The notes under the pieces: model-generated
Told to the model about the DNA's origin: nothing
Databases searched by the model: none
What the model saw: only the letters and a program-made list of their open reading frames with translations
Program-made: the position numbers and the translations under genes
NCBI GenBank assembly: GCA_017460175.1
Contig: JAFUBO010000003.1
Span: 222,651 to 286,650, forward strand
Direction: 5' to 3'
From: Bacilli bacterium
Lineage (GTDB): Bacteria > Bacillota_I > Bacilli_A > RF39 > UBA660
DNA: 64,000 bases
Shown: positions 13,547-27,726 of the stretch, piece after piece
How positions within the stretch are numbered: position 1 is the stretch's first letter
Layout: every line of letters begins with the position of its first letter

Positions 13547-14431
13547 ATGATAGTAGAAGATAATGAAGGATTAAGACTAGATAGTTATTTATCAGAAAAA
13601 TTAGATCTTTCTCGTAGTAAAGTTCAAAAACTTATTAAAGATGAAAAAGTATTAGTAAATGGTAAGAAAGTTAATAGTTCTTATTCTGTAAAATTAGATG
13701 ATGAAATTATAGTTAATGATGAATTAGATTATGAAATAAAAGTAGATCCTGAAGATATACCTTTAAATATTATTTATGAAGACGATGATTTATTAATCAT
13801 AAATAAAGAGAGTGGTATGGTAGTACATCCTGCTCCAGGTCATTATACAGGAACTCTTGTTAATGCATTACTTTATAGATATAAAGAACTTGCTGGTGAT
13901 AAATTTAGACCTGGTATAGTTCATAGATTAGATAAAGATACTAGTGGATTAATGTTAGTAGCTAAAAATGAATTCACATTAGAAAAATTATCAGAAATGA
14001 TTTCCACAAAAAGTGTGGAAAGAAAATATATTGCTTTAGTAGATGGTGTTATTAAAAATGATTCAGGAGAAATAGATGCACCTATTGGAAGAGATAGAAA
14101 TAATAGACAAAAGATGGCTGTAACAGATGTTAATGGAAAGAACGCTATAACTCACTTTAAAGTATTAGATAGATTTAATAATCATACTTTAATAGAATGT
14201 ATTTTAGATACTGGTAGAACTCACCAAATAAGAGTTCATATGGCATATATTGGATATCCTGTTTCAAATGACCCATTATACGGAAGAGGAAAAGCAGATG
14301 AATATGGTCAACTACTTCATTCATATTCAATTAAGTTAAAACATCCAAGAACAGGAAAAGAATTATCATATGAAATAGATCTACCAGAAGAGTTTAAAAA
14401 TAGATTAGAAAAAATAAAGAATGGTGAATAA
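13547..14431 (+). CDS. rluD: 23S rRNA pseudouridine synthase, RluD family
   Basis: A 294-residue protein with an N-terminal S4 RNA-binding domain (DSYLSEKLDLSRSKVQKL, about residues 10-55) and the RluA/RluD catalytic core. The active-site motif is HRLDKDTSGLMLVA with the catalytic Asp; GRTHQIRVHMAYIG and NDPLYG follow. It isomerises uridines in large-subunit rRNA helix 69 if a true RluD; RluA-family paralogues with other targets cannot be excluded. First gene of an operon with the NUDIX and ASCH genes, with end-to-start spacings of 1-10 nt. Confidence 0.9.
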   Translation: MIVEDNEGLRLDSYLSEKLDLSRSKVQKLIKDEKVLVNGKKVNSSYSVKLDDEIIVNDELDYEIKVDPEDIPLNIIYEDDDLLIINKESGMVVHPAPGHYTGTLVNALLYRYKELAGDKFRPGIVHRLDKDTSGLMLVAKNEFTLEKLSEMISTKSVERKYIALVDGVIKNDSGEIDAPIGRDRNNRQKMAVTDVNGKNAITHFKVLDRFNNHTLIECILDTGRTHQIRVHMAYIGYPVSNDPLYGRGKADEYGQLLHSYSIKLKHPRTGKELSYEIDLPEEFKNRLEKIKNGE

Positions 14432-14432
14432 T

Positions 14433-14942
14433 GTGAAAGAAATAATATATAATCATGATAATTTAAAAGATGAAGATATAGATGAAGTAGTTATTAGAAC
14501 TAAAGGTTTACTAATTAATAGTAAGAATGAAATTACTTTAGGCTATTCTTATAAAACATATCAATTTACAGGAGGACATTTAGAAAAAGGAGAAAGTCTA
14601 GAAGAGTGTTTAATAAGAGAAATAAAAGAAGAGACTGGAATAGAATTAAATAATTATAATATGACTCCTTTCTTTAAAACAGTTTATTATACTAAAAATT
14701 ATCACAATAGTGGAAAAAATAGGAAGAATGAAATATATTTTTATGTAATTAAAACTGATGAAGTATATAATACTAATAATTCTAATTTAACTGAAAATGA
14801 AATAGAAGGTAATTATGAATTAAAAACAATACCTTTAGAAGATGTTGAAAATATATTAATTAGTAGTATTAAAGATAATCCAATAAATGAAGTTATAGTA
14901 GGAGAAATGCTAGAAGTAATAAAAGAATATAAAAGTCTATAG
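14433..14942 (+). CDS. NUDIX hydrolase 1
   Basis: About 169 residues. The NUDIX box GHLEKGESLEECLIREI-KEETG is complete (G, E, RE, EE, G in place). NUDIX enzymes hydrolyse nucleoside diphosphates linked to another moiety using the box Glu residues and Mg2+. The start is probably GTG 14433 preceded by GGTGA, 1 nt after the rluD stop. An in-frame ATG at 14421 would overlap rluD by 11 nt. First of three tandem NUDIX genes that are dissimilar outside the box. Substrate not predictable. Confidence 0.88.
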   Translation: MKEIIYNHDNLKDEDIDEVVIRTKGLLINSKNEITLGYSYKTYQFTGGHLEKGESLEECLIREIKEETGIELNNYNMTPFFKTVYYTKNYHNSGKNRKNEIYFYVIKTDEVYNTNNSNLTENEIEGNYELKTIPLEDVENILISSIKDNPINEVIVGEMLEVIKEYKSL

Positions 14943-14951
14943 GAGGTTATT

Positions 14952-15359
14952 ATGAACGGTAATAGAATTATAGCTCATGCATTAATAAATGTAGATGGAA
15001 AATATTTAGTTACTAAAAGAAGTAAAACAGAAACTCCATTTCCAGAATATTGGGATTTACCAGGTGGTATGGTAGAGTTGGGAGAACTTCCAAGAGATGG
15101 TGTAATAAGAGAGACAAAAGAAGAAATAGGATTAGATATTATTCCTACAAAGATAATACATGATGATAGTAATCTAGATAAAGTAAAGGATAAAATATTT
15201 ATTAGATTTGTTTATTTATGTGAATTAAAGGATGATATTAAAAATATTAAACTACAAGAAGAAGAACATTCTGAATATAGATTAATTAATAGTTTAGATG
15301 AATTAAAAGATGAGAAGATAACACCATTCTTATTAGATTTATTTGAAAATGATTTATAG
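14952..15359 (+). CDS. NUDIX hydrolase 2 (MutT-like)
   Basis: A 135-residue, single-domain NUDIX protein with the box GGMVELGELPRDGVIRET-KEEIG. The size and the opening AHALINVDGKYLVTKRSK resemble MutT/ADP-sugar pyrophosphatase-like family members. Ribosome binding site AGGAGG overlaps the end of the previous gene. Substrate unknown. Confidence 0.88.
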   Translation: MNGNRIIAHALINVDGKYLVTKRSKTETPFPEYWDLPGGMVELGELPRDGVIRETKEEIGLDIIPTKIIHDDSNLDKVKDKIFIRFVYLCELKDDIKNIKLQEEEHSEYRLINSLDELKDEKITPFLLDLFENDL

Positions 15360-15368
15360 GAGGATAAT

Positions 15369-15848
15369 ATGGATGCGAGATTTAAAACCGATGAAGGAAG
15401 ATTAAAATTAAGAGTATCAGGTATTATTATTCATGATAATAAAATATTACTTGAGACATATGAAGATAATTCCTTTTGTTTACCTGGTGGTACTATTAAT
15501 TTAAATGAAGATAGTGAAGATGCTATAAAAAGAGAATTATTGGAAGAAACAGATCAAGAATTTATTGTAGATGAATTAGTAAGTATAAATGAAGAATTTT
15601 ATACTAATTTTAAAGATATAAAAACTCATTGTATTAATTTCTATTATAAAATGAAATTTAAAAATGAAGAGGACGCTAAAACAATAGATTTAGATAGATT
15701 AGAGAATGATCATGGCTATATGATGCAACATCATTATAAATGGATTGAATTAAAAAATTTAAAAAATATGGATTTAATGCCAATAGAGATAAGAGATGAA
15801 ATAATTAATAATGAATATAAATTTCACCATATTATAAAAGAGGTCTAG
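15369..15848 (+). CDS. NUDIX hydrolase 3 with altered box end
   Basis: A 159-residue NUDIX-fold protein with the box GGTINLNEDSEDAIKREL-LEETD. The catalytic RE and EE residues are kept, but the final conserved Gly is Asp. This Gly is structural, so activity is still plausible. A His-rich stretch (YMMQHHYKW) lies near the C-terminus. AGGAGG ribosome binding site; 2 nt separate its stop from the ASCH start, so expression is coupled. Confidence 0.85.
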   Translation: MDARFKTDEGRLKLRVSGIIIHDNKILLETYEDNSFCLPGGTINLNEDSEDAIKRELLEETDQEFIVDELVSINEEFYTNFKDIKTHCINFYYKMKFKNEEDAKTIDLDRLENDHGYMMQHHYKWIELKNLKNMDLMPIEIRDEIINNEYKFHHIIKEV

Positions 15849-15850
15849 GT

Positions 15851-16192
15851 ATGGAAATGATATTTCATTTAGATAGTGATATATTTGATATAGTTAGTAG
15901 TGGTAGTAAAGACGTAGAAATAAGATTAAATGATGAAAAGAGAAGAAAACTAAATATTGGTGATACATTAGTATTTTTAAAAAGACCTGATGATATAGAA
16001 AGTATTAAAGCTACTATTACTAATTTAGTTTATTTTAATAATTTTTTAGAAGTGGTTAATTATTATGATATGAAAAGAATATATTTAGATAATACTTCTA
16101 GTGAAGATTATATTAATTTAATGAAAAGATTTTATAATGATGAAGAAGTAGAAAAATATGGAGTGGTTGCAATAGAGTTTAATAAGAGTTAG
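15851..16192 (+). CDS. ASCH-domain protein
   Basis: A 113-residue protein whose core KDVEIRLNDEKRRKLNIGD followed by TLVF is the ASCH beta-barrel signature: Glu/Arg at the ligand site and the KxxIGD-xxxF turn. ASCH proteins (PUA-like) bind RNA or nucleotides, and some are amidohydrolases for modified cytidine (YqfB). The exact role here is unknown, but its place after three NUDIX genes fits nucleotide clean-up. The last 100 bp (16081-16180) are duplicated at 21636-21735. Confidence 0.82.
   Translation: MEMIFHLDSDIFDIVSSGSKDVEIRLNDEKRRKLNIGDTLVFLKRPDDIESIKATITNLVYFNNFLEVVNYYDMKRIYLDNTSSEDYINLMKRFYNDEEVEKYGVVAIEFNKS
16081..16180 (+). repeat. Direct repeat, left copy (3' end of ASCH gene)
   Basis: Aligns without gaps to 21636-21735 with 88 of 100 positions identical by hand count. 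The two copies bracket the ackA-to-radical SAM block. Confidence 0.85.
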
Positions 16193-16202
16193 ACTCTTTT
16201 TT
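16184..16202 (+). terminator. Intrinsic terminator of the ASCH gene
   Basis: AAGAGT, TAG (the stop codon as loop), ACTCTT, then T tract. Confidence 0.75.
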
Positions 16203-16214
16203 GTGAATAAAAGA

Positions 16215-16242
16215 TTGACAATTTATAATTTTTGAGTATAAT
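16215..16242 (+). promoter_or_regulatory. Promoter of the ackA block
   Basis: TTGACA (16215-16220), 16-nt spacer, TATAAT (16237-16242). Both hexamers are perfect consensus. Confidence 0.88.
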
Positions 16243-16272
16243 ACTATACGTATTTAAGCAGGTGATTATTAT

Positions 16273-16329
16273 ATGAGAAAAAAACTGTTTATAAATCTGA
16301 TATTAATATTGGAGGGTAAAAAACTATAG
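16273..16329 (+). CDS. 18-residue leader peptide of the ackA block
   Basis: Encodes MRKKLFINLILILEGKKL, preceded by GCAGGTGATT with good spacing. It is rich in Leu and Ile with a basic start and end. The last four sense codons and the stop codon form the 5' arm and loop of the terminator hairpin at 16312-16350. Leader ORF, overlapping terminator and structural genes in this order are the signature of translation-coupled transcription attenuation. The inducing signal is unknown. Confidence 0.7.
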   Translation: MRKKLFINLILILEGKKL

Positions 16330-16350
16330 GTTTTTTGCCCTCTTTTTTTT
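16312..16350 (+). terminator. Attenuator terminator upstream of ackA
   Basis: A 13-bp stem (16312-16324 with 16330-16342, one G-U pair), 5-nt loop TATAG holding the leader stop codon, then T8 (16343-16350). One of the strongest hairpins in the window, and it sits between a consensus promoter and ackA. Confidence 0.9.
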
Positions 16351-16369
16351 GTAAAAAAGAGGTGATGGT

Positions 16370-17572
16370 ATGAATAAAGTATTAGTAATAAATAATGGTA
16401 GTACATCATTTAGATTTAAATTATTTGATACAAAAAACTATAACGTATTGGCAAGTGGATCGATTGAAAATATGCTTAAGGATAATTCGTATTTTAAATA
16501 TACTAATGGTTCTGATAATATAAAGAAATCAATTAAGATTAATAATTTTGATGAAATAATAAGTTTAATGGAAGAATTATTGATTGGTGAAAAACTCGGG
16601 GTAATAGATAGTAAAAAAGAAATAGATTCTATAGGGTATAGAGTAGTACATGGTGGAGAAAAATTTAATAAATCTATTATAATTGATAATAAGTCTTTAA
16701 ATGAAATTAAAGAATTGTGTGAATTGATGCCATTACATGGTTCTAAAATTGTAAATTCTATTGAAATTTGTTCTAATGTTTTTCCCAATTCAGTACCTGT
16801 TGCAGTATTTGATACAGCATTTCATTCGACAATTCCTAAAGAAATCTATTTATATGCTATTCCAATTGAATATTATGAAAAATATGGAATTAGAAAATAT
16901 GGATTTCATGGAATATCATATAATTATGTTTTCAATAGATATTTAAATATAACCAATACAAAAAAAGAATCTTATGATGGTGTTATATGTCATTTGGGTG
17001 GAGGTTCAAGTCTATGTGCAATTAAAGATGGCAAATCATATGATACAACAATGGAATTTACTCCTTCATCTGGAATGATAATGGCAAGTAGAGTTGGTAA
17101 TATAGATCCTATTGCTTTATTTTATATAATGCAAAAAGAAAATAAGTCTATTGAAGAAATTATTGATATGATGAATAAGTATAGTGGATATAAAGCATTA
17201 TGTAATGATACAGATATGAAATCAATAGTTGATAGAAGTGAAAATAATGATGCTGATGCAATACTAACTAGGAGAATGATTGAAGTTGATTTTAAAAAGA
17301 ATTTGTTGTCAATGATGGCTAATTTAGATAGAGTTGATTCTATTATTTTTACCGGTGGAATAGGTACTAAAAACAAAGAACAAAGAGAAATGTTATTACA
17401 AAATTTATCATATTATGGTATAGAAATAGATAGAGAACTAAATAATAAGTGTTTTAATAATGAAATGATGATTAGCAGACATGGTTCAAGAATACCAGTA
17501 TATGTAATACCTGATGATGAGGAAAAGGAAATAGCAAGTGAGTGTGTTCAATTAATAAAAAGGAGGGGATAA
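16370..17572 (+). CDS. ackA: Acetate kinase
   Basis: A 400-residue ASKHA-fold kinase interconverting acetate plus ATP and acetyl phosphate plus ADP. Residues known from Methanosarcina thermophila acetate kinase fall at the same numbers: R91, H123, D148, H180, R241 and E384. The acetate-pocket residues V93, L122, F179 and P232 are also present. Differences lie around these sites: PLHGS instead of PLHNP, and TPSSGMIMASRVGN instead of the usual TPLEGLxMGTRSGD. So it is a divergent member that probably still uses acetate or a close short acid. First gene of a five-gene block under the leader attenuator; ribosome binding site AGAGGTGATGG. Confidence 0.88.
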   Translation: MNKVLVINNGSTSFRFKLFDTKNYNVLASGSIENMLKDNSYFKYTNGSDNIKKSIKINNFDEIISLMEELLIGEKLGVIDSKKEIDSIGYRVVHGGEKFNKSIIIDNKSLNEIKELCELMPLHGSKIVNSIEICSNVFPNSVPVAVFDTAFHSTIPKEIYLYAIPIEYYEKYGIRKYGFHGISYNYVFNRYLNITNTKKESYDGVICHLGGGSSLCAIKDGKSYDTTMEFTPSSGMIMASRVGNIDPIALFYIMQKENKSIEEIIDMMNKYSGYKALCNDTDMKSIVDRSENNDADAILTRRMIEVDFKKNLLSMMANLDRVDSIIFTGGIGTKNKEQREMLLQNLSYYGIEIDRELNNKCFNNEMMISRHGSRIPVYVIPDDEEKEIASECVQLIKRRG

Positions 17573-17573
17573 T

Positions 17574-19544
17574 GTGAATAATAATGTATTACTTGTGGGA
17601 TTAGGACCACATTCTAAAAGAATATATTTAAAATACTTAAAAACAAGTGATTGTACTTTATTATACTTGTTAGAACTTGAAAGTAAAAAAGATAGTTCAA
17701 GAAAGTATTTAGATGAAAATGGATATGAGAATGTAAAAATATATACAATACCTGATAAGTATAAAGATTATAATAAATTACCTAAAAAGTATTATGATGA
17801 GTTGCTTGCTACTTGTAAGCAAAATAAAATTAATAAAATTATTATTTCTACTGAGCCCAAGGCACATCATATGTACTTAAAGTTTGCAATTGAAAATAAT
17901 ATTGATGTTTTATCTGATAAACCAATAATAGTATTAAAAGATATGCAAAAATTAAGTAGTATTAATAAAATGAGAGATGAATATTATGAGTTATTAGATT
18001 TACATAAAAAAAATAAATCACAATGTAAGATAATGTGTCAGAGATTATATCATAAAGGATATATTTATATAAAAGAATTATTAAAAGAAGTAGTATCAAA
18101 GTATAATATTCCAATAACTTACATTGATATATATCATTGTGATGGTAACTGGGAGTTTCCACATGATTTAGATAAAGAAAATCACCCATATAAATATGGA
18201 TATGGGAAACTATATCATAGTGGATTTCATTTTATAGACTTATTGGCAGAATTATTAAAAATAAATGAGTATGTTAGTGGTGATAAATCAATTACTAATG
18301 GATATTTACATGGCAATATATTTACACCTGATGATGAGTTGGCTGTATTTAATAAGAATGATTACAATAATATTTTCCCAGAATCTAGAAAAGATAAATT
18401 TTATAAAAAATTAAATAGTATTAATTTTGAAAATTATGGTGAAAAGAATTTTTATAGTCAGTTATACTTTTATAATAAGAATAATAAATTAATTACTACT
18501 GCCAATTTAAACTTACTACATTATGGAGTTTCTAGAAGAGGATGGTTTCAATCGAAAGATTTTTATAAAAAAAATGGACGAATTAGACATGAGAAAGTTA
18601 GTATTAATGTTGGAACTTTAATGAATATTCAAATAACTAGTTGTCAGTCTAAAGAAATAAAGGACAGAACAAATTCTATAGATGAAATATACGAAGGCGG
18701 ATTAGAACATTTTGATATTGATATATATAGAAATGTTGATATAATTGGTGGTAAAGCCCATGAAAAAATAAGATTGTATGATTTATATAATGAGAATATG
18801 AATTCAGATGAGTTTATAGGATTTAATGAGAAATCTCGTGAAGATTGTATTAATGCTTTTTTAAATAATAATAGTAAAATAGGTGAAATTGAAGAAGAAA
18901 AATTAGGAATTGAAATACTGTATAGTGCTTCAAAAGTAATATATAATAAATTAAAGAATAAAGATAAATTGATTAATATAGATATTCCTAAAGCAAGAAG
19001 TAATTTTAAATGTATAGCTACTATAACAGATTGTGATTTTGGAGAAGCAAAAGTATCGTTTAATAAACCTAGAAAAAGGGTTGCAGCTAGGGGAATAGTT
19101 ATTAGAAAAGATGGTAAGATAGCTTTATTTAATAAGGCTAATAAGAATGAGTATAAATTACCTGGCGGTGGAGTAGAAGATAATGAGAATCTTGAAGAAG
19201 CGTTTAAAAGAGAAATAAAAGAAGAAACAGGATGTGTTGTAAAAATAGTTGAAGGCTTAGGAACAATAAAAGAGGAAAAGAGCAAAGACAATTTTAAACA
19301 AACTTCATATATTTATGTAGCTAAAGTTATTAGAAATACTAAGAAATTAGAACTAACAAAGAAAGAGCAAGATGAAGGTGGAAAACTAATATGGGTTACA
19401 GTTGAAGATGCTTTAAAATTGGTAAGTAATTGCATGAATAAATTAAAACCTTCAAAATATGAAAATCTATATCATAGTAAGTTTATTGTGTTAAGAGATA
19501 AAAAAATATTAGAATATTATATAAAAGAAAGAAAAGGTGATTAA
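17574..19544 (+). CDS. Gfo/Idh/MocA-like oxidoreductase fused to a NUDIX domain
   Basis: A 656-residue fusion. The first roughly 130 residues form a Rossmann-type NAD(P)-binding region (LLVGLGPHSKR at 6-16; ISTEPKAHH; VLSDKPI), as in Gfo/Idh/MocA sugar or inositol oxidoreductases, and a long middle region follows. The last 150 residues are a NUDIX domain with the box GGGVEDNENLEEAFKREI-KEETG (about 531-553). The start is GTG 17574 after AGGAGGGG, 1 nt past the ackA stop. The dehydrogenase-NUDIX union suggests action on a nucleotide-linked or phosphorylated substrate; this is inference. The middle region is not one I recognise. Confidence 0.78.
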   Translation: MNNNVLLVGLGPHSKRIYLKYLKTSDCTLLYLLELESKKDSSRKYLDENGYENVKIYTIPDKYKDYNKLPKKYYDELLATCKQNKINKIIISTEPKAHHMYLKFAIENNIDVLSDKPIIVLKDMQKLSSINKMRDEYYELLDLHKKNKSQCKIMCQRLYHKGYIYIKELLKEVVSKYNIPITYIDIYHCDGNWEFPHDLDKENHPYKYGYGKLYHSGFHFIDLLAELLKINEYVSGDKSITNGYLHGNIFTPDDELAVFNKNDYNNIFPESRKDKFYKKLNSINFENYGEKNFYSQLYFYNKNNKLITTANLNLLHYGVSRRGWFQSKDFYKKNGRIRHEKVSINVGTLMNIQITSCQSKEIKDRTNSIDEIYEGGLEHFDIDIYRNVDIIGGKAHEKIRLYDLYNENMNSDEFIGFNEKSREDCINAFLNNNSKIGEIEEEKLGIEILYSASKVIYNKLKNKDKLINIDIPKARSNFKCIATITDCDFGEAKVSFNKPRKRVAARGIVIRKDGKIALFNKANKNEYKLPGGGVEDNENLEEAFKREIKEETGCVVKIVEGLGTIKEEKSKDNFKQTSYIYVAKVIRNTKKLELTKKEQDEGGKLIWVTVEDALKLVSNCMNKLKPSKYENLYHSKFIVLRDKKILEYYIKERKGD

Positions 19545-19545
19545 G

Positions 19546-20217
19546 ATGAGTAATAAAAAGGATAGATGGAATAAGTTGTATGAAGAAAAGATACAGGAAG
19601 AATTTGAAAATTTTGATGAGTATTTTAAGACTAAGATGCAGCTTAAACAAGCATTCTTAAAACAAGTTATAAAATATGCTAAAGATAAACCAATTCTAGA
19701 ATGTGGATGTGGAACTGGCAAAGCAACCGTTTATTTAGCTAGCAAAGGTATTAAGTCATATGGAATGGATTTGGAAGAAGCTATGGTGAAACAGACAAAA
19801 GAATTATCTAAAAAGGTATGTAAAGAAAATCCTGTTAAAACAGTTCAAGGTGATATTAAAAATATACCATTTAAAGATAAATTTTTCTCAGTAACACATA
19901 GTAGTGGAGTATTAGAACATTACTCAGATGAAGAGATAATTGAACTTATTAATGAACAATTGAGAGTGTCAGATATTTGTGTTTTTAGTGTTCCTACTAA
20001 GTATTTTGATAAGAAAATGCTTGGTAATGAAAGATTTATGACAAGAAAAGAATGGGTATCAATAATTAATAGAAGTAATGCTAAAATTATTAAGAAATTT
20101 GGATATCATTACAAAAAACTTGGTAAGAGAGTTATTGATATATTAAAAAAACCTAAGAGAATTTTTAAACCAATTGCATTATATGGTTTTGTATTAGAAG
20201 AAAGGAGGGTAAAATGA
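19546..20217 (+). CDS. Class I SAM-dependent methyltransferase
   Basis: A 223-residue protein with SAM-binding motif I ILECGCGTGKA (about residues 50-60), an acidic residue closing strand 2 (YGMDLEEAM), motif II/III VQGDIKNIPFKD and the methyltransferase-11 signature HSSGVLEHYSDEE. Start ATG 19546 after AAAAGGTGATTAAG, 1 nt after the previous stop. The acceptor is unknown; placement among small-molecule enzymes suggests a metabolite rather than RNA or protein. It overlaps the next gene by 4 nt (ATGA). Confidence 0.88.
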   Translation: MSNKKDRWNKLYEEKIQEEFENFDEYFKTKMQLKQAFLKQVIKYAKDKPILECGCGTGKATVYLASKGIKSYGMDLEEAMVKQTKELSKKVCKENPVKTVQGDIKNIPFKDKFFSVTHSSGVLEHYSDEEIIELINEQLRVSDICVFSVPTKYFDKKMLGNERFMTRKEWVSIINRSNAKIIKKFGYHYKKLGKRVIDILKKPKRIFKPIALYGFVLEERRVK

Positions 20218-20744
20218 TATATATAGTAAGACATGGTCAAACAGATTGGAATGTTGAAGGAAGATATGCAGGAAGAAAAGATATAGATATCAATGAAAAA
20301 GGAATAGAACAAGCTAAAATAATGAGAGATGAGCTTATTGATGTAAAATTTGATAAAGTTATTTCTAGTCCTTTGAAGCGTGCTGTTCAAACAGCTCAAA
20401 TAATATCACAGTTTGATAATGTTGGTGATATCATAATTGATGAAAGAATTATAGAAAGATGTAATGGTGAATTAGAAGGTAAATTAAAGACTGAAGTACC
20501 GCAAAATATAGATTTTAATGATCCAAATACAGGATATGGTATTGAGACAATTACAGATTTTAGAAAGAGGATAAAAGATTTCTGTGATGAGTTAAAAAAT
20601 AAATATAAAGACGAAGATGTTTTAGTAGTTACACATGGCGGAGTAAGTATATATATAAGATGTTACTTTGAAGGCGAACCAGAAAAAGATGATTATCTAA
20701 AGTATAAAATGAAAAATTGTGAAGTAATCAAATATAAAAATTAG
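20214..20744 (+). CDS. Histidine phosphatase family protein (phosphoglycerate-mutase-like)
   Basis: A 176-residue branch-1 histidine phosphatase. It has the phospho-accepting RHGQTDWN (7-14), SSPLKRAVQTA, acid residue region IIERCNGELEG and the second catalytic His in VTHGGVS. Members dephosphorylate small phosphorylated metabolites (for example CobC, PhoE and nucleotide phosphatases). Translationally coupled to the methyltransferase by ATGA overlap. In this block it may remove a phosphate from a pathway intermediate; the substrate is not identifiable. Confidence 0.9.
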   Translation: MIYIVRHGQTDWNVEGRYAGRKDIDINEKGIEQAKIMRDELIDVKFDKVISSPLKRAVQTAQIISQFDNVGDIIIDERIIERCNGELEGKLKTEVPQNIDFNDPNTGYGIETITDFRKRIKDFCDELKNKYKDEDVLVVTHGGVSIYIRCYFEGEPEKDDYLKYKMKNCEVIKYKN

Positions 20745-20757
20745 GAGGGTATAGGTT

Positions 20758-21600
20758 ATGGATAAAAGAAAATATATTACTGAAGATGGTGAACATAAAG
20801 AGGACATCATTGTATCATGGATTATTACACATGGATGTCCAGAAAGATGTGCTTATTGTATAAGCCCAGAAAAATGTGAAGAAATAACAGATTATGAAAC
20901 TCATAAGGCAATTCAAGATCAAATGATTGCAACAGGATTAACAAAGAATAGATATATAGGTGGAGAACCATTATTATTGCCACATCTTCCAAAATTAATA
21001 AAGGAAGCTAAAGAAAATGGTTTAAATACTAGATTAAGTACAAATGGTATATTATTGACTAAAGAAAAGTTAATTGAAATACGAGATTATTTAGATTCAA
21101 TGGCATTACCATTTGAATCATGCAATGACGAATTAAATAGAAGTATTAGAGGTACAAAGAATCATAGTGAAATAGTATCTTCAAGAATTAAAATGGTACG
21201 TGAAATGAGTGATATTGGTGTATTAGTAAATACTTGTGTTCACAAAGAAAATATTAATGAATTAGAAAAACTAGCATATCATTTAGAGACATTAGGAATT
21301 GATCACTGGAAATTAAGAATGTTTAATTCATCAAGTGGTAGAGGAGCAGTTCCTAATAAAAATAGATTTGAAATATCAGAAGAACAATTTTTTGAAATTG
21401 TTGATCATATTAAGAGTCTAGGATTAAATTATAGAATTGATGGAAGATTACCATCTAAATTAAACACTAGATTAATGGTATCGCCAACAGGAGAATTATA
21501 TAGAATGATTGGTGGAGATGATGAACAAGTTCATTATGGTAATGTATTAACAAAGAAACTTAACATAAGAGAAATATATAAACGTGATGGATGTAATTAA
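20758..21600 (+). CDS. Radical SAM enzyme with viperin-like features
   Basis: A 280-residue radical SAM protein. The 4Fe-4S motif is CPERCAYC (C27, C31, C34), then GGEP (68-71) and STNGILL (94-100). From residue 110 on, YLDSMA, DELNRSIRGTKNH, NTCVHKENINE, HWKLRMFN and NRFEISEEQFF follow the order and spacing of viperin's YLDILA, GKKNH, INSVINRFNVEE, RWKVFQ and ERFVIGDEEFE. Viperins make ddhCTP and occur in bacteria as antiviral enzymes. Because general MoaA-like enzymes share part of this pattern, the assignment is a hypothesis. No SPASM cysteine cluster is visible at the C-terminus. Last gene of the block; AGGAGGGT ribosome binding site. Confidence 0.8.
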   Translation: MDKRKYITEDGEHKEDIIVSWIITHGCPERCAYCISPEKCEEITDYETHKAIQDQMIATGLTKNRYIGGEPLLLPHLPKLIKEAKENGLNTRLSTNGILLTKEKLIEIRDYLDSMALPFESCNDELNRSIRGTKNHSEIVSSRIKMVREMSDIGVLVNTCVHKENINELEKLAYHLETLGIDHWKLRMFNSSSGRGAVPNKNRFEISEEQFFEIVDHIKSLGLNYRIDGRLPSKLNTRLMVSPTGELYRMIGGDDEQVHYGNVLTKKLNIREIYKRDGCN

Positions 21601-21630
21601 TAAATGTTAATTTATCAATGATACAAATAA

Positions 21631-21750
21631 TTAATATATTTAGATAATACTTCAAAAGAAGATTATATTAATCTTATGAAGAGATTTTATACTTTAGAAG
21701 AAGTAGAAAAATATGGAGTAGTTGCGATAGAGTTTAAATTAGAAAAATAG
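21631..21750 (+). pseudogene. Truncated ASCH pseudogene (C-terminal third only)
   Basis: The frame opens after a stop at 21628-21630 and reads LIYLDNTSKEDYINLMKRF, then YTLEEVEKYGVVAIEF, then KLEK and a stop. It matches residues 77 onward of the ASCH protein at 15851-16192, and similarity fades upstream. There is no start codon or ribosome binding site for this fragment. It lies directly after the radical SAM gene and 7 nt before the phosphotransferase gene. Confidence 0.85.
21636..21735 (+). repeat. Direct repeat, right copy (ASCH remnant)
   Basis: Counterpart of 16081-16180, 88 of 100 identical, same orientation. Confidence 0.85.
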
Positions 21751-21757
21751 GTGATTT

Positions 21758-22612
21758 ATGATGGATAATAATATAAAAACTATTTTTAAAAATTTAAATA
21801 TTGAAGTTAATGATATAATTCCTGCAAATAATTCTTTTAATGCTGAAGTATTTATTATTAATTCTAATAATAAAAAGTATATTTTTAAGATATGTAATAA
21901 AGAAAAGAAAATAGAAACAGTAGTTAGATATATGTCACATTTATCTAATTATTTAGATACTGCGGAAGTATTAGACAGTGGAATTATTAATAATAAGTAT
22001 TATGTTATTATGAGTTATATTGAAGGAGAAAATAAATTTGATGAAGAAATAGATACTTTATCAGATAAACAATTAATAGAGATGGGTAGGTTACTTGCTA
22101 AATTACATAATGCTCCTTTAATAGATGAAGATGATGATTCATGGATTAAATATTTAAATGAAAAGTTAGAAGATTCTCAAGAAGTATTAGATAATGTATT
22201 TGGTGAGAATAATAAAGTAATTTATGATTATTTAAAAGATTATATAAATAATGATATAAAAGGTAATTATAAAAATTCTATTTTACATATGGATTTTAGA
22301 ATAGGTAATTTAATATTTAATAATGATAAAATTAGTTTAATTGACATGGATAGTATGAAAAATGGAGATTATATATGTGATTTTTTTAGAATGTATAATG
22401 ATCTATCTAAAGAAAAATTTAATATATTACTATCAGGATATAAAGAAATTAGAAATATAGATGATAATTTCTATGAAAGATTAAAATTCTATAGTTTATT
22501 TACTTCTTATATAGTTTTATATTGGTGTATATCAAGAAATAAAAAAGATGATAACTTTTATAATAAAAACTATAATATAGTAATGAATTATTTAAAAGAT
22601 TTAAAAAAATAG
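21758..22612 (+). CDS. APH/choline-kinase-type phosphotransferase
   Basis: A 284-residue protein-kinase-like small-molecule kinase. It has the catalytic loop HMDFRIGNLIF (HxDxxxxN, about residues 176-186) and a DFG-equivalent IDMDS (about 194). An upstream Lys in the strand KKYIFKICNK probably binds ATP. Aminoglycoside, choline, fructosamine and homoserine kinases share this fold, so the substrate is open. It begins 7 nt after the ASCH remnant, which suggests that it once followed an ASCH gene directly. ATGATG start; ribosome binding site AGGTGATT. Confidence 0.83.
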   Translation: MMDNNIKTIFKNLNIEVNDIIPANNSFNAEVFIINSNNKKYIFKICNKEKKIETVVRYMSHLSNYLDTAEVLDSGIINNKYYVIMSYIEGENKFDEEIDTLSDKQLIEMGRLLAKLHNAPLIDEDDDSWIKYLNEKLEDSQEVLDNVFGENNKVIYDYLKDYINNDIKGNYKNSILHMDFRIGNLIFNNDKISLIDMDSMKNGDYICDFFRMYNDLSKEKFNILLSGYKEIRNIDDNFYERLKFYSLFTSYIVLYWCISRNKKDDNFYNKNYNIVMNYLKDLKK

Positions 22613-22637
22613 AAGGTGATTTATATCACTTTTTATT
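22613..22637 (+). terminator. Intrinsic terminator after the phosphotransferase gene
   Basis: AAGGTGAT, loop TTAT, ATCACTTT (one G-U), followed by TTATT. Confidence 0.6.
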
Positions 22638-22711
22638 ATGTAAACTAATTTACATAAAGTTTGAATTAGTTAAAAAATAAGGTTAAAATTATGATTAGGA
22701 GTTGATAAAAC

Positions 22712-22740
22712 TTGCAAAAATATCGAAAATATGTTATAAT
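22712..22740 (+). promoter_or_regulatory. Promoter of the AMP-forming ligase gene
   Basis: TTGCAA (22712-22717), 17-nt spacer, TATAAT (22735-22740) with the TGT extension. Confidence 0.75.
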
Positions 22741-22767
22741 ATGTGCACATATGAGGGGGAATATGGT

Positions 22768-24570
22768 GTGACAAAAGAAGAATTATTAAAATTACGAAAA
22801 GATGTTTTAAATCTAAAGAGGGTAATGGAATTTGAGAAAATGTTACCTAATATGTCTGCTTATGAATTTTTAGCTGATAGTAGTAAAGACAGATTAAATG
22901 ATGTTGCAATTAATTATTTAGGTAGAACTTATACTTTTAGAGAATTATTTGATAAAATTGATAATTTTGCTAAAGGATTATATGAAAATGGTGTTAGACC
23001 TGGTGATACGGTTGGGCTTGGAATGTTAAGTACACCAGAAGCAATTATTTCTTTTTATGCTTTAAATAAAATAGGTGCACTTACATATATGGTTAATGCG
23101 ACACATGAATTAAATGGTATTAAAGAAGAATTATTAGATTCTCAAGCAAAAATACTTATTACAAATACAATTTTTTATGATAAAAACTTTAAAGAAGTTG
23201 TTGATCAAACAAGTATTGAGAAAGTAATAGTTTCTGCTCTCGATGAATCTTTTCCTAAGGGATTCTTTATGGATAAAGCGATGTTTAAAGTTGTTGAATC
23301 TTTAAAGAAAATTGGCAGTGCAATTTCAAAAGATGAGAAATGTACTTCTTGGAGTTCTATTTTATTGGAAGGCGAAAATTCAAAAATTAATATAAAACCT
23401 TATTATGAACCTAATATTGGCATTGCTGTTGCATCTACTAGTGGATCTACTGGAAAACCAAAAAGACCAATGATTACGAACGAAAATATTAATTCTATGG
23501 CAATTCAATTAGGAATGACTGCAGTCAATGAAATTGCACCTAATGATTCGATTCTGACAACCTTACCAATTTGGATTTTTTATAGTCTATTTAATAGTAT
23601 TCATGAACCTTTATGTTTGGGAGTGACTGTAGATCTTGATCCATTATTTAATTCTAAAAGAATAGATAAGAGATTAAGACAATATCGTTTTAATCACTGG
23701 AACACAATTCCTGCTTATATTGAGGATTTTGTAAATTGTAAAAGAATTAAAAATATGGATTTATCACATTTAAAATTAATAACAACTGGTGGTGATTATA
23801 GACCTCCTAAGTTGAAGAAATTGGCAGAGCAAAAATTGAAAGCTAATAATTCTGACATTGAAATAGGGCAAGGTTATGGAGCTTCAGAATGTGGAGGGTG
23901 TTTTGGATATACCTCTGAACGTGGTATGAAACCTGAATCAATTGGTGTTCCTTTAATTGGTAATGCTTATAAAATTCTAGATGTTGATACTCATAAAGAA
24001 TGTCAAGCTAATGAATCAGGTGAGTTGTTCTTGTATTCTCCGACAATGATGAAAGAATATTATGGTGATGAAGAAGCTACAAAAAAGGCATTTATTTATG
24101 ATGATGATGGAACAAAATGGTATAGAACAGAGGATATGGCCCATTTTGATGAAAATGGACAATTGTTTATAGATGGTCGTTTAAGAAGAATTGAAATATC
24201 TAGGGATGCAAATGGTGTACCAACTAAAGTATTCCCTGATAAAGTAAAACAAGTGGTTTCTTTACATCCTGCTGTAGATAGATGTGAAATTGTTATGGTT
24301 GATGATTCTAAAAGAATTACTAGACCTGTTGCATATGTAATTCTACATAATGGTATTACGTTAGATAATGATTTAATTAGAAATATAAATGATTTATGTT
24401 TAAGAAATAATGTTGAAAGTTATATAATTCCTACAGAGTATAAACAATTAAATGAAATACCTATGACACCGAGTCTAAAGGTAGATTTTAGTAAATTAAA
24501 AGATATGTATGAAAAAGAATCTAACCAAAAACAAAAAGTTTTATTTAAATTAAATAATAAAAGAAGTTAA
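22768..24570 (+). CDS. AMP-forming acyl-CoA synthetase/ligase (ANL superfamily)
   Basis: About 600 residues. It activates a carboxylate as acyl-AMP. ANL motifs are present: TSGSTGKPKRPMIT (P-loop), GQGYGASECGG, YRTEDMAHFDENGQLFIDGR (hinge region) and the A10-type Lys in TPSLKVDF near the C-terminus. The start is GTG 22768 after GAGGGGG; the open frame extends to 22702, but the promoter lies inside that extension. The substrate (fatty, aryl or amino acid) is not predictable, and no carrier-protein or CoA-using partner is adjacent. Monocistronic, with promoter and terminator. Confidence 0.88.
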   Translation: MTKEELLKLRKDVLNLKRVMEFEKMLPNMSAYEFLADSSKDRLNDVAINYLGRTYTFRELFDKIDNFAKGLYENGVRPGDTVGLGMLSTPEAIISFYALNKIGALTYMVNATHELNGIKEELLDSQAKILITNTIFYDKNFKEVVDQTSIEKVIVSALDESFPKGFFMDKAMFKVVESLKKIGSAISKDEKCTSWSSILLEGENSKINIKPYYEPNIGIAVASTSGSTGKPKRPMITNENINSMAIQLGMTAVNEIAPNDSILTTLPIWIFYSLFNSIHEPLCLGVTVDLDPLFNSKRIDKRLRQYRFNHWNTIPAYIEDFVNCKRIKNMDLSHLKLITTGGDYRPPKLKKLAEQKLKANNSDIEIGQGYGASECGGCFGYTSERGMKPESIGVPLIGNAYKILDVDTHKECQANESGELFLYSPTMMKEYYGDEEATKKAFIYDDDGTKWYRTEDMAHFDENGQLFIDGRLRRIEISRDANGVPTKVFPDKVKQVVSLHPAVDRCEIVMVDDSKRITRPVAYVILHNGITLDNDLIRNINDLCLRNNVESYIIPTEYKQLNEIPMTPSLKVDFSKLKDMYEKESNQKQKVLFKLNNKRS

Positions 24571-24587
24571 TAATTTAACTTTTTTTA
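24564..24587 (+). terminator. Intrinsic terminator of the ligase gene
   Basis: AAGTTAA/TTTAACTT stem spanning the stop codon, then T7. Confidence 0.75.
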
Positions 24588-24635
24588 TTTTTTGTATAAA
24601 ATTATGATATACTATTTTATAGTAGGTGGTTGTGT

Positions 24636-27176
24636 ATGGGAATAATATGGTTACAAATTACTAGTTTAGTGTATATGAGTGTTTTGTTAATAATATATTT
24701 TTCATCTAAACGAATAAATAGTATTGAAACTGAAATATTCAAAAAAATAATGATAGCAAATTGGTTTGGTTTAATAATTGAATTAAGTTGTTTTTATACT
24801 GTTCACAATATTGATGTTATACCAATTATCAATTATGTTGTAACTCATCTGTTATTAATATATTACATTATATATATATTGTTGTTTACATATTATTTGT
24901 TTATATTTTCAAATAGTGAAAAGGCAGATGAAACATATCGAAAGAAAATAAGAATTTTTTGTTATATATATTTTATAATAAATTCTTTAGCTATAGTATT
25001 ATTACCTTTACATTATAATTTAGAACCGGGAAAAATGTATTCATATGGGCCATCTGTTAATTTTATGTTTATTTCCTATACTGTTTTGACATTAATATGG
25101 ATTATTTGCTTGATTAAGAATTTTAGAAATTTAAAATTAAAAAAGATGTTACCAATAATTATTTTAATTATTTTAGGTGCTATTGTTGGAATGGTTCAAA
25201 GAATTTATCCAGAATTATTATTGATGACTGGTGCCGATACTATAGTTACTTTTATTATGTACTTTACTATTGAAAATCCTGATATGAAGATGATTCAACA
25301 ATTAGAAGTTGCTCGTGAACAGGCTGATAAGGCTAATAGAGCTAAGACTGATTTCTTAAGTAGTATGTCTCATGAAATTCGTACTCCTTTGAATGCAATT
25401 GTTGGATTTAGTGATTGTATTGCTGATGCTAAGAATTTAGGGGAGGCACAAGAAAATGCTAAAGATATAGTTAATGCTAGTCAAACTTTACTTGAGATAG
25501 TTAATGGAATACTTGATATTAGTAAGATAGAAGCTGGTAAGATAGAGATTATTAATACTAAATATAATGCTCCTGAGACATTCGAAGATTTAGCTAAATT
25601 AATTACTCCTAGAATGAATGAAAAGGGTCTTGATTTTAGTTATAGTATTGCTCCTGATTTACCTATGACTTTATTTGGAGATCATGCTAATATTAAGAAG
25701 ATTGTTACTAATCTTTTGAGTAATGCTTGTAAGTATACTGATAAAGGTTTTGTACATTATGAAGTTAATTGTATTAATACAAAAAATGTATCTAAATTAA
25801 TTATTTCTGTTGAAGATTCAGGTCGCGGTATTAAGAAAGATAGTATTGATAAGATGTTTACTAAGTTCCAAAGATTAGATGAAGATAGAAATACTACTAT
25901 TGAGGGTACTGGACTTGGGTTAGCTATTACTAAACAATTAATTGAGTTAATGGGTGGTAGAATTATAGTTCATACTGTGTATGGAGAAGGTTCTAAGTTT
26001 ACTGTTGTTTTAAATCAAAAGATAACTACTGCTGATGAAGTTTCTAATAAGAAAGTTAAATCTACTTTAGATTTAAATGGAGTTAGAATATTAATGGTTG
26101 ATGATACCCCATTAAATATAAAGGTTGGTTGTAAATTACTTGAAAAGTATGGTGCTAACAATATAATTACATGTGATAGTGGATTTGAGTGTATTGATAG
26201 AATTAATCGTGGAGAAGTATATGATGTTATTTTACTTGATGATATGATGCCTAAGATGAGTGGTGTTGAAACACTTAAGAAATTAAAAGAAAATCCTAAT
26301 TTTAAAATACCAACTGTTGCGTTAACTGCTAATGCAATTAGTGGAATGAGAGAAAAGTATTTAGCTGATGGATTTGATGATTATTTAGCTAAACCAATTG
26401 AACAAACTCAATTAATCCAGGTTATGAACCAGGTTCTTGGTAGAAGTGCTACAGAAGATATTAATACTGTTGAAATTAAAAAAGCAGAGGAAAATATAAG
26501 AAGTGAAGAGATACCTAATGTAGAAGACCAAGAAAAAGCAGAAGAAGAAAGAAAGAATAATTCTGAAGAAACTCCTAATCCTGATATTATTCCAGTAGAA
26601 GATAATATTGAAGATATATTAGGTGATGAATTGGATATGAATTATAAAGAAAAAACTATGACTGGTATGCAACCAATAGTAGTAGAGAAAGATGATGAGA
26701 TTGAAATGCTTGATGATCCTACTATTACAGAGGTTAAAAAGGTTGAGACTATTCCAGTTGTTGATATTGGTCCAATACCTGAAGTTAGTAATGTACCTAA
26801 TTTATATGATAGGGAATACTTAGAAGATAATGGAGTAGATGTAGATCATGCATTAGAACTTTTAGGTGATATGGATATGTATAATATGACTATAAGTGAT
26901 TTTGTTAATGATGTAGAAAATAAATGGAATAAAATAGTAGAATATAAAAATAGTGGAAATATGCCGGAATATGCAATAGAAGTTCATTCTTTAAAAAGTG
27001 ATTGTAAGTATTTAGGATTTATGAAACTTGCAGATATAGCTTATCAACATGAGTTGAAGAGTAAAGAAAATGATAGTAATTTTGTTAATAGTAATTTTGA
27101 AGAATTAGAAACTGAGTATAAAAAGGTATTAGAAATTGCTAAAGAATATGCTACTCATAATGTAGTAGAAGGATAA
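24636..27176 (+). CDS. Hybrid sensor histidine kinase with REC and HPt domains
   Basis: About 846 residues. The N-terminus has seven or so hydrophobic segments (to about residue 215). Then come HisKA with SHEIRTPLNAIVGFSD (His about 244), HATPase with NLLSNACKYTDKG, DSGRGIKK and GTGLGLAITKQL (about 423), a receiver domain with MVDDTPLN and phospho-acceptor ILLDDMMP (about 533), an acidic linker (about 600-720), and an HPt-like domain with VHSLKSDCKYLG (His about 783). The full phosphorelay His-Asp-His is in one chain. Start ATG 24636 follows GTAGGTGG. No separate response regulator is nearby, so the output protein must be elsewhere. Confidence 0.9.
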   Translation: MGIIWLQITSLVYMSVLLIIYFSSKRINSIETEIFKKIMIANWFGLIIELSCFYTVHNIDVIPIINYVVTHLLLIYYIIYILLFTYYLFIFSNSEKADETYRKKIRIFCYIYFIINSLAIVLLPLHYNLEPGKMYSYGPSVNFMFISYTVLTLIWIICLIKNFRNLKLKKMLPIIILIILGAIVGMVQRIYPELLLMTGADTIVTFIMYFTIENPDMKMIQQLEVAREQADKANRAKTDFLSSMSHEIRTPLNAIVGFSDCIADAKNLGEAQENAKDIVNASQTLLEIVNGILDISKIEAGKIEIINTKYNAPETFEDLAKLITPRMNEKGLDFSYSIAPDLPMTLFGDHANIKKIVTNLLSNACKYTDKGFVHYEVNCINTKNVSKLIISVEDSGRGIKKDSIDKMFTKFQRLDEDRNTTIEGTGLGLAITKQLIELMGGRIIVHTVYGEGSKFTVVLNQKITTADEVSNKKVKSTLDLNGVRILMVDDTPLNIKVGCKLLEKYGANNIITCDSGFECIDRINRGEVYDVILLDDMMPKMSGVETLKKLKENPNFKIPTVALTANAISGMREKYLADGFDDYLAKPIEQTQLIQVMNQVLGRSATEDINTVEIKKAEENIRSEEIPNVEDQEKAEEERKNNSEETPNPDIIPVEDNIEDILGDELDMNYKEKTMTGMQPIVVEKDDEIEMLDDPTITEVKKVETIPVVDIGPIPEVSNVPNLYDREYLEDNGVDVDHALELLGDMDMYNMTISDFVNDVENKWNKIVEYKNSGNMPEYAIEVHSLKSDCKYLGFMKLADIAYQHELKSKENDSNFVNSNFEELETEYKKVLEIAKEYATHNVVEG

Positions 27177-27188
27177 TATATGTGGATT

Positions 27189-27220
27189 GCACTTAATCTT
27201 TAAAGATTAGAGTGCTTTTT
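27189..27220 (+). terminator. Intrinsic terminator of the histidine kinase gene
   Basis: Long stem GCACT(TAATCTT)/(AAGATTA)AGTGC with a bulged G, then T5C T5. Confidence 0.75.
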
Positions 27221-27243
27221 CTTTTTCTATCATTTATACAATA

Positions 27244-27269
27244 AAAAAAGTACAATTCTGTACTTTTTT
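27244..27269 (-). terminator. Terminator of the tspO gene (bidirectional form)
   Basis: AAAAAAGTACA, loop ATTC, TGTACTTTTTT. On the minus strand it closes the TspO gene. Confidence 0.8.
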
Positions 27270-27726
27270 ATAAATTTAATAAATAGATTGATAGAGATAG
27301 TACTGTTGCGAATACAAGTAGTATTATGTATGGTTGTAATAATTTAGATATTTTGTTATTAAGTAGGGATGTTTCTTCATATAAAAATAAGGCTGATATA
27401 AATGTTCCTAGACATGATACAAATCCTAAGAAATTATTATTTAATCCAAAGAATATTAATGTATAACTTTGGTTAAAAATATAATTAATTAGTAAAGTTG
27501 TTTTATAATTTTTTGGTATATCTTTAAATTTGTATGCTCTTATTACTGTATATATAGTAATCGCTATTAATATATACATTATAGTCCAAACTATTGGGTA
27601 AAATATTCTAGGTGGTGCAAAAAATGGTTTATTAATTGTATTATAATAATCATAATTTAATGGAATAATACTTGATAAAAACCATGGGGCTAAACATGCT
27701 AAAAATAATAAAATCTTTTTAATCAT
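27268..27726 (-). CDS. tspO: TspO/MBR family membrane protein
   Basis: A 152-residue protein with five hydrophobic helices, the family size. The motif NKPFFAPPRIFYPIVWTIMY is the classical TspO KPxxxPPxxxFxPVWTxxY block between helices 1 and 2; NYIFNQSYTLIFFGLNN matches the NxxWxxxFF region. TspO proteins bind porphyrins and other tetrapyrroles and modulate stress responses; no porphyrin genes are nearby. Ribosome binding site GAGGAGATGATC. Convergent with the histidine kinase and divergent from the rhomboid gene. Confidence 0.88.
   Translation of the reverse strand: MIKKILLFLACLAPWFLSSIIPLNYDYYNTINKPFFAPPRIFYPIVWTIMYILIAITIYTVIRAYKFKDIPKNYKTTLLINYIFNQSYTLIFFGLNNNFLGFVSCLGTFISALFLYEETSLLNNKISKLLQPYIILLVFATVLSLSIYLLNL

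What the first reader, a model, noticed from the sequence alone, without database searches (positions are those of the whole stretch)
16215..16370. Leader-peptide attenuator controlling the ackA block
A perfect -35/-10 promoter is followed by an 18-codon ORF with a good ribosome binding site. The last codons and stop of this ORF form the 5' arm and loop of a 13-bp, T8-ended terminator; ackA starts 20 nt later. A ribosome reaching the stop codon would sit on the hairpin and allow read-through, whereas absent or early-arrested translation would allow termination. This links block expression to translation of a Leu/Ile-rich peptide, as in antibiotic- or amino-acid-responsive attenuation. No such leader is known to me for acetate kinase genes.
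Basis: partly seen in the sequence, partly recalled or inferred. Interest (0 to 1): 0.72.

Follow-up and report, generated by a model that had tools for sequence, protein, structure and literature searches.

The report
Leader-ORF attenuator before ackA-like cassette
A strong bacterial promoter is followed by a tiny reading frame that runs into a transcription stop signal just ahead of an acquired five-gene cassette, so the cassette is probably switched by whether ribosomes reach the stop signal; this is a known style of switch at a new place, and nothing here shows what signal it senses.

Summary
A perfect TTGACA-16-TATAAT promoter (16215-16242), an 18-codon ORF with a 7-nt Shine-Dalgarno match (ATG 16273, UAG 16327-16329) and a strong T8 terminator (16311-16350) precede an acetate-kinase-family gene (ATG 16370). 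No other promoter-like site lies between the terminator and the gene, so the cassette should be expressed by readthrough. An attenuator is therefore likely (about 0.85). Involvement of leader translation is plausible (about 0.5): ORFs this good, ending in the hairpin, arise in 0.03-0.15% of shuffled leaders. Conservation does not support it. One ortholog of the gene was found in 386 family and 288 order genomes, and it has its own promoter with no leader and no terminator. There is no antiterminator, no run of regulatory codons and no TTNTTT pause motif, so Leu/Ile or antibiotic sensing is speculation. The gene is not housekeeping ackA: it is a third, divergent paralog that starts a five-gene cassette flanked by a 105-nt direct repeat of the ASCH gene's 3' end and absent from the closest relative. 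The mechanism resembles the Streptococcus gallolyticus pil1, msrDL and pyrBI attenuators. Verdict: probable new member of a known kind, modest interest.

The parts
16215..16242 (+). sigma-70-type promoter, TTGACA-16-TATAAT, 12/12 match; inferred start of transcription about 16248-16250
16260..16266 (+). Shine-Dalgarno AGGTGAT of the leader ORF (7-nt match to the anti-SD)
16273..16329 (+). leader ORF, 18 codons plus UAG, MRKKLFINLILILEGKKL; includes two CTG codons (CTG is 0.36 per 1000 codons in the genome)
16311..16350 (+). intrinsic terminator: stem 16311-16343, loop AUA 16326-16328, T tract to 16350
16339..16362 (+). possible alternative hairpin: terminator 3' arm plus T tract paired with the A-rich tract and Shine-Dalgarno of ackA, -10.7 kcal/mol, z -2.9
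16370..17572 (+). acetate-kinase-family kinase, 400 aa, divergent paralog; first gene of the cassette
17574..19544 (+). Gfo/Idh/MocA-type oxidoreductase fused to a Nudix domain
19537..20217 (+). SAM-dependent methyltransferase
20214..20744 (+). histidine phosphatase superfamily, branch 1
20758..21600 (+). radical SAM protein, last gene of the cassette
16078..16182 (+). left copy of a 105-nt direct repeat (3' end of the ASCH-domain gene 15851-16192)
21633..21737 (+). right copy of the direct repeat, 89% identical (a fragment of an ASCH gene)

Best explanation
A translation-coupled transcription attenuator at the 5' border of an acquired five-gene cassette. RNA polymerase starts near 16249 and, by default, stops at 16344-16351, giving a transcript of about 100 nt. 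When a ribosome follows closely enough to reach the last codons or the UAG of the leader ORF while the hairpin is being made, it covers the 5' arm and loop, the hairpin cannot form, and transcription continues into the kinase gene and the four genes after it. Shown from sequence: promoter, terminator, ORF and their overlap. Inferred: that the terminator is efficient, that the ORF is translated, that ribosome occupancy decides readthrough, and that a signal modulates it. What is sensed is unknown; a simple report of leader initiation and ribosome-polymerase spacing needs no ligand.
For: Perfect promoter of a class that is always intergenic here; strong terminator where 0.1 is expected by chance, -19.2 kcal/mol, z -6.3; ORF with a 7-nt Shine-Dalgarno match and its stop in the loop, 0.025-0.15% of shuffles and 0.07 expected genome-wide; no promoter-like site in the 20 nt between terminator and gene; the leader upstream of the hairpin is otherwise unstructured (z +0.4) and matches no Rfam family, which argues against a riboswitch. 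Precedents pil1, msrDL and tR2/pyrBI. The same architecture is conserved elsewhere in this genus, upstream of serine recombinases.
Against: No conservation of leader or terminator: the one ortholog, G312, lacks both, and the hairpin occurs in none of the other 385 family genomes. In-genome scans show that looser versions arise by chance (1.2 expected at SD of 5 nt or more), and one of the three hits is a structured RNA with a spurious ORF. No TTNTTT pause motif before the hairpin's 3' arm, and terminators in the first 100 nt of an ORF are reported to be poorly repressed because coupling is not yet established (PMC4824070). No expression data.
Confidence: 0.5

Rival explanations
1. A terminator-based attenuator that does not use the ORF: termination is fixed (a volume control for an acquired cassette) or set by an RNA-binding protein or small RNA; the ORF is incidental or merely tolerated.
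For: Terminator and promoter are the strongest parts. Short ORFs with moderate Shine-Dalgarno matches fall into terminators by chance, and the example at C1:289648 is demonstrably not an ORF in its homolog.
Against: The 7-nt Shine-Dalgarno match at good spacing with an ATG is hard to get by chance. No known protein-binding antiterminator or riboswitch matched.
Confidence: 0.25
2. A self-contained small transcript (small protein or sRNA gene) with its own promoter and terminator; the cassette is expressed from elsewhere, for example by leakage from the upstream Nudix/ASCH operon.
For: Promoter, ORF and terminator form a complete 100-nt unit; the peptide is basic then hydrophobic, like a small membrane peptide (inference).
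Against: There is no promoter-like site between the terminator and the gene, a hairpin-like sequence lies at the end of the ASCH gene (16184-16204, by eye), and no homolog of the unit was found on its own.
Confidence: 0.12
3. Amino-acid-responsive attenuation: ribosomes pausing at scarce Leu codons (two CTG) set termination, in the manner of leu or trp leaders.
For: 5 Leu and 3 Ile in 18 codons; CTG is 0.36 per 1000 codons in genes of this genome yet occurs twice here.
Against: Leu codons are not consecutive; no antiterminator or pause hairpin; the cassette is not a Leu/Ile pathway; a pause at codons 5 or 9 would leave the hairpin free, so starvation would switch the cassette off. CTG twice is about 0.5% in random sequence of this composition (own estimate).
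Confidence: 0.06
4. Antibiotic-responsive attenuation: a drug-stalled ribosome at the end of the ORF opens the terminator, as with msrDL.
For: Same geometry as msrDL; MRKK carries an Arg-X-Lys motif.
Against: No resistance gene in the cassette; the Arg-X-Lys motif is at the start of the peptide, far from the hairpin, so a stall there would not open it. The APH-like gene at 21758 lies outside the cassette, beyond the right repeat.
Confidence: 0.07

Closest known systems
Streptococcus gallolyticus pil1 leader peptide attenuator (PMC3894217)
   Same: Promoter, leader ORF with RBS, stem-loop terminator (-18.7 kcal/mol against -19.2 here), first structural gene; stop codon within the hairpin gives the 'on' configuration; no ligand needed.
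   Different: pil1 leaders carry GCAGA repeats and phase-vary; here there are no repeats and the stop is fixed in the loop.
msrDL leader peptide of msrD (PMC10314930)
   Same: Short ORF just ahead of or overlapping a Rho-independent terminator; the stalled ribosome obstructs the hairpin.
   Different: msrDL is MYLIFM, sensing macrolides, with a TTNTTT pause site; here no such motif, no resistance gene, 18 codons.
E. coli pyrBI attenuator (discussed in PMC4824070)
   Same: Terminator lies within the leader coding region; ribosome-polymerase spacing decides.
   Different: pyrBI relies on UTP-sensitive pausing in U-rich tracts; no comparable tract precedes the hairpin here, and the genes differ.
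trp/leu-type amino acid attenuators
   Same: Leader peptide plus terminator upstream of an operon.
   Different: No run of regulatory codons, no antiterminator, no biosynthetic operon; their terminators lie more than 20 nt after the leader ORF (PMC4824070), here they overlap.
Leader ORF/terminator units before serine recombinases in the same genus (L261, L262, L264, L265; also G000 C6:59429)
   Same: Promoter, Shine-Dalgarno, ORF whose last codons form the terminator 5' arm with the stop in the loop.
   Different: No sequence similarity to the ackA leader seen; those are conserved between species and go with mobile-element recombinases.

Membership tests
Ribosome-mediated transcription attenuators with leader ORF overlapping the terminator (pil1/msrDL/pyrBI type) | Intrinsic terminator between promoter and first structural gene | tested here: met
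Ribosome-mediated transcription attenuators with leader ORF overlapping the terminator (pil1/msrDL/pyrBI type) | Short ORF with functional initiation signals | tested here: inconclusive
   Strong Shine-Dalgarno and ATG, 0.025-0.15% by shuffling, but translation not shown and no homologs to test for coding selection
Ribosome-mediated transcription attenuators with leader ORF overlapping the terminator (pil1/msrDL/pyrBI type) | Stop codon within or a few nt from the hairpin | tested here: met
   UAG 16327-16329 in loop of stem 16311-16343
Ribosome-mediated transcription attenuators with leader ORF overlapping the terminator (pil1/msrDL/pyrBI type) | Readthrough depends on leader translation | not testable with these tools
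   Needs a reporter or RNA-seq
Ribosome-mediated transcription attenuators with leader ORF overlapping the terminator (pil1/msrDL/pyrBI type) | RNA polymerase pause that lets the ribosome catch up (TTNTTT in Bacillota examples) | tested here: not met
   No TTNTTT between 16243 and 16330; other pause signals not excluded; not present in every member of the kind
Ribosome-mediated transcription attenuators with leader ORF overlapping the terminator (pil1/msrDL/pyrBI type) | Conservation of the unit in relatives | tested here: not met
   Only one ortholog locus, without leader or terminator; hairpin unique among 386 genomes
Amino acid biosynthesis attenuator (leu/trp type) | Run of codons for the regulating amino acid and a mutually exclusive antiterminator | tested here: not met
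   5 scattered Leu codons; no antiterminator in folds
Antibiotic resistance leader (erm/msr/vml type) | Downstream resistance gene and arrest motif placed to open the terminator | tested here: not met
   Cassette genes are not resistance genes; Arg-X-Lys only at residues 2-4
Riboswitch or T-box (Rfam) | Match to a described RNA family or structured aptamer upstream of the hairpin | tested here: not met
   No gathering-level hit, sub-threshold hits only; region 16248-16310 z +0.41

The most novel reading that the evidence does not exclude
A leader peptide senses a specific cue (Leu-tRNA status through rare CTG codons, or a small molecule at the ribosome) and so gates an acquired, uncharacterised cassette of an acetate-kinase-family kinase, an oxidoreductase-Nudix fusion, a methyltransferase, a phosphatase and a radical SAM enzyme.
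Probability: 0.08. Interest if true: 0.55.

Novelty: new member of a known kind. Interest (0 to 1): 0.3.

Why it matters
If true it shows an acquired metabolic cassette under ribosome-gated transcription in a small AT-rich genome, outside the usual resistance and amino-acid settings. The more useful by-product is the conserved leader-ORF/terminator units before serine recombinases in the same genus, which suggest that such attenuators control mobile elements there.

Tried and rejected
Conservation of the leader: DNA search in 39 genus genomes gave only generic matches to the ackA Shine-Dalgarno/start region and other short AT-rich matches; exact hairpin pattern in 386 family genomes and in viral contigs gave only the window itself. 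Orthologs of the kinase: genus search found only 30-40% paralogs; family and order searches found one ortholog, G312, 57% identical; GTDB contig scan gave at best 42-43%; viral contigs none. Riboswitch or other Rfam RNA: rejected. Same architecture at C1:289648 taken first as support, then rejected: the RNA is conserved in G032 but the ORF is not. Antiterminator: none in folds. Leucine leader: rejected on codon arrangement. Paper search for ackA plus leader peptide plus attenuation: no paper holds all terms.

Full report
What is in the sequence. The promoter at 16215-16242 is a perfect -35/-10 pair with a 16-nt spacer. In this genome such 12/12 sites number 17, all intergenic and directed at a gene, where 2.7 are expected in Markov sequence of the same composition, so I take the promoter as real. 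The weaker promoter-like matches around it are at chance level (121 found, 117 expected in 13.9 kb). The ORF starts at ATG 16273 after AGGTGAT, reads MRKKLFINLILILEGKKL and stops with UAG at 16327-16329. The terminator stem spans 16311-16343, with 15 pairs counting G-U, loop AUA and a T tract to 16350; it folds at -19.2 kcal/mol with z -6.3. ackA begins at 16370 with its own strong Shine-Dalgarno (GAGGTGAT).

Is it more than chance? The terminator is: 1 found and 0.1 expected in 1.4 kb. For the ORF I shuffled the 68 nt between the -10 box and the hairpin, keeping dinucleotides and the hairpin. ATG ORFs ending in the hairpin with a Shine-Dalgarno match of at least 5, 6 and 7 nt arise in 1.2%, 0.15% and 0.025% of shuffles. 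Across all 108 terminators of the genome, 1.2 cases are expected at 5 nt or more and 3 are seen; 0.07 are expected at 7 nt and 1 is seen, this one. The statistical case for the ORF is therefore fair, not overwhelming, since the architecture was noticed before it was tested.

What the other two genome-wide cases teach. The unit at C1:289648 looks like a leader ORF, but its homolog in G032 keeps the RNA and terminator and not the ORF; it is a structured RNA, and a warning. The unit at C6:59429 goes the other way: related leaders with different peptides, all with the stop codon in the terminator loop, are found in G005, G002, G001 and G032, and two of them stand directly before serine recombinase genes (Resolvase and Recombinase domains confirmed for one). 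That shows the architecture is really used in this genus, though not by relatives of this leader.

The gene downstream. The protein is a member of the acetate/propionate kinase family, but the genome has two other ackA-like genes in tandem at C1:122196 and C1:124381, and the present one is only about 38% identical to them. Among 386 family and 288 order genomes a close ortholog occurs once, in G312, at 57% identity. In both genomes it is followed by the Gfo/Idh-type gene (61%), and methyltransferase (67%), histidine phosphatase (71%) and radical SAM (68%) relatives lie nearby. I call this a cassette. Its biochemical product is unknown.

How the cassette arrived. The 3' end of the ASCH gene (16078-16182) is repeated at 21633-21737 with 89% identity, so the five genes sit between direct repeats 5.5 kb apart. 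The closest relative at this locus, G018, has rluD (93%), Nudix (91%) and ASCH (88%) followed by a different small gene and then the TspO homolog, with no cassette. Across the genus the order rluD, variable Nudix/ASCH genes, AMP-binding enzyme, histidine kinase, TspO is kept. The leader lies just inside the left repeat, at the border between resident and acquired DNA. Insertion by recombination at the repeat is an inference.

Conservation of the leader. Upstream of the G312 ortholog there are 79 nt, with TTGACA and a -10-like TAATAT 17 nt further on, and no ORF and no terminator (spacing read by eye). The hairpin sequence occurs in no other family genome and in no viral contig. So the unit may be recent or specific to this lineage, and selection on the ORF cannot be tested.

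Mechanism. With the stop codon in the loop, a ribosome at the end of the ORF covers about 15 nt on either side and so the whole 5' arm and loop. S. gallolyticus pil1 provides the experimental precedent: leader peptides that end within the hairpin raise transcription, destroying the leader start lowers it, and chloramphenicol lowers it (PMC3894217). In E. coli a terminator a few nt after a stop codon is almost fully repressed, and repression needs translation (PMC4824070). The same paper warns that terminators early in a transcript are less repressed unless polymerase pauses, and the TTNTTT pause motif discussed for msrD and vmlR is absent before the hairpin's 3' arm. I therefore put 0.5 on the translation-coupled version and about 0.85 on a terminator-based attenuator of any sort.

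Sensing. Five scattered Leu codons, two of them the very rare CTG (0.36 per 1000 codons), are suggestive, but CTG twice is not very improbable in unselected sequence of this composition (about 0.5%, own estimate), there is no antiterminator, and a pause at codon 5 or 9 would leave the terminator free. Drug sensing lacks a resistance gene. A further structural detail: the terminator 3' arm and T tract can pair with the A-rich tract and Shine-Dalgarno of ackA (-10.7 kcal/mol, z -2.9); this might damp ackA translation while a ribosome holds the 5' arm, but the terminator hairpin is the stronger of the two.

Verdict. Observation confirmed; interpretation partly supported; probable new member of the known leader-ORF/terminator class of attenuators; no evidence for a new signal or a new principle.

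Noticed in passing
G000 C6:59355-59525 (outside the window; L231:19355-19525) and L261, L262, L264, L265: Leader ORF with its last codons forming the terminator 5' arm, similar in at least four other genomes of the genus and, in two of them, directly before serine recombinase genes; looks like a conserved attenuator of mobile elements.
   Followed up: partly
G000 C1:289590-289720 (outside the window; L199:9590-9720) and L240: Structured RNA with terminator behind a perfect promoter, upstream of a GNAT-like gene; 72% identical in G032 where the apparent ORF is lost; no convincing Rfam match. A candidate undescribed RNA family.
   Followed up: partly
window 16078-16182 and 21633-21737: 105-nt direct repeat of the ASCH gene 3' end flanking the five-gene cassette; suggests how the cassette was inserted.
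   Followed up: partly
window 13547-27726: rluD - variable Nudix/ASCH genes - AMP-binding enzyme - histidine kinase - TspO order is kept across the genus, with a variable middle that looks like a gene-exchange spot.
   Followed up: partly
window 17574-19544 and L063-L071: Gfo/Idh-type and Nudix parts are fused here but are adjacent separate genes in several family genomes, often in the order Nudix then oxidoreductase.
   Followed up: no
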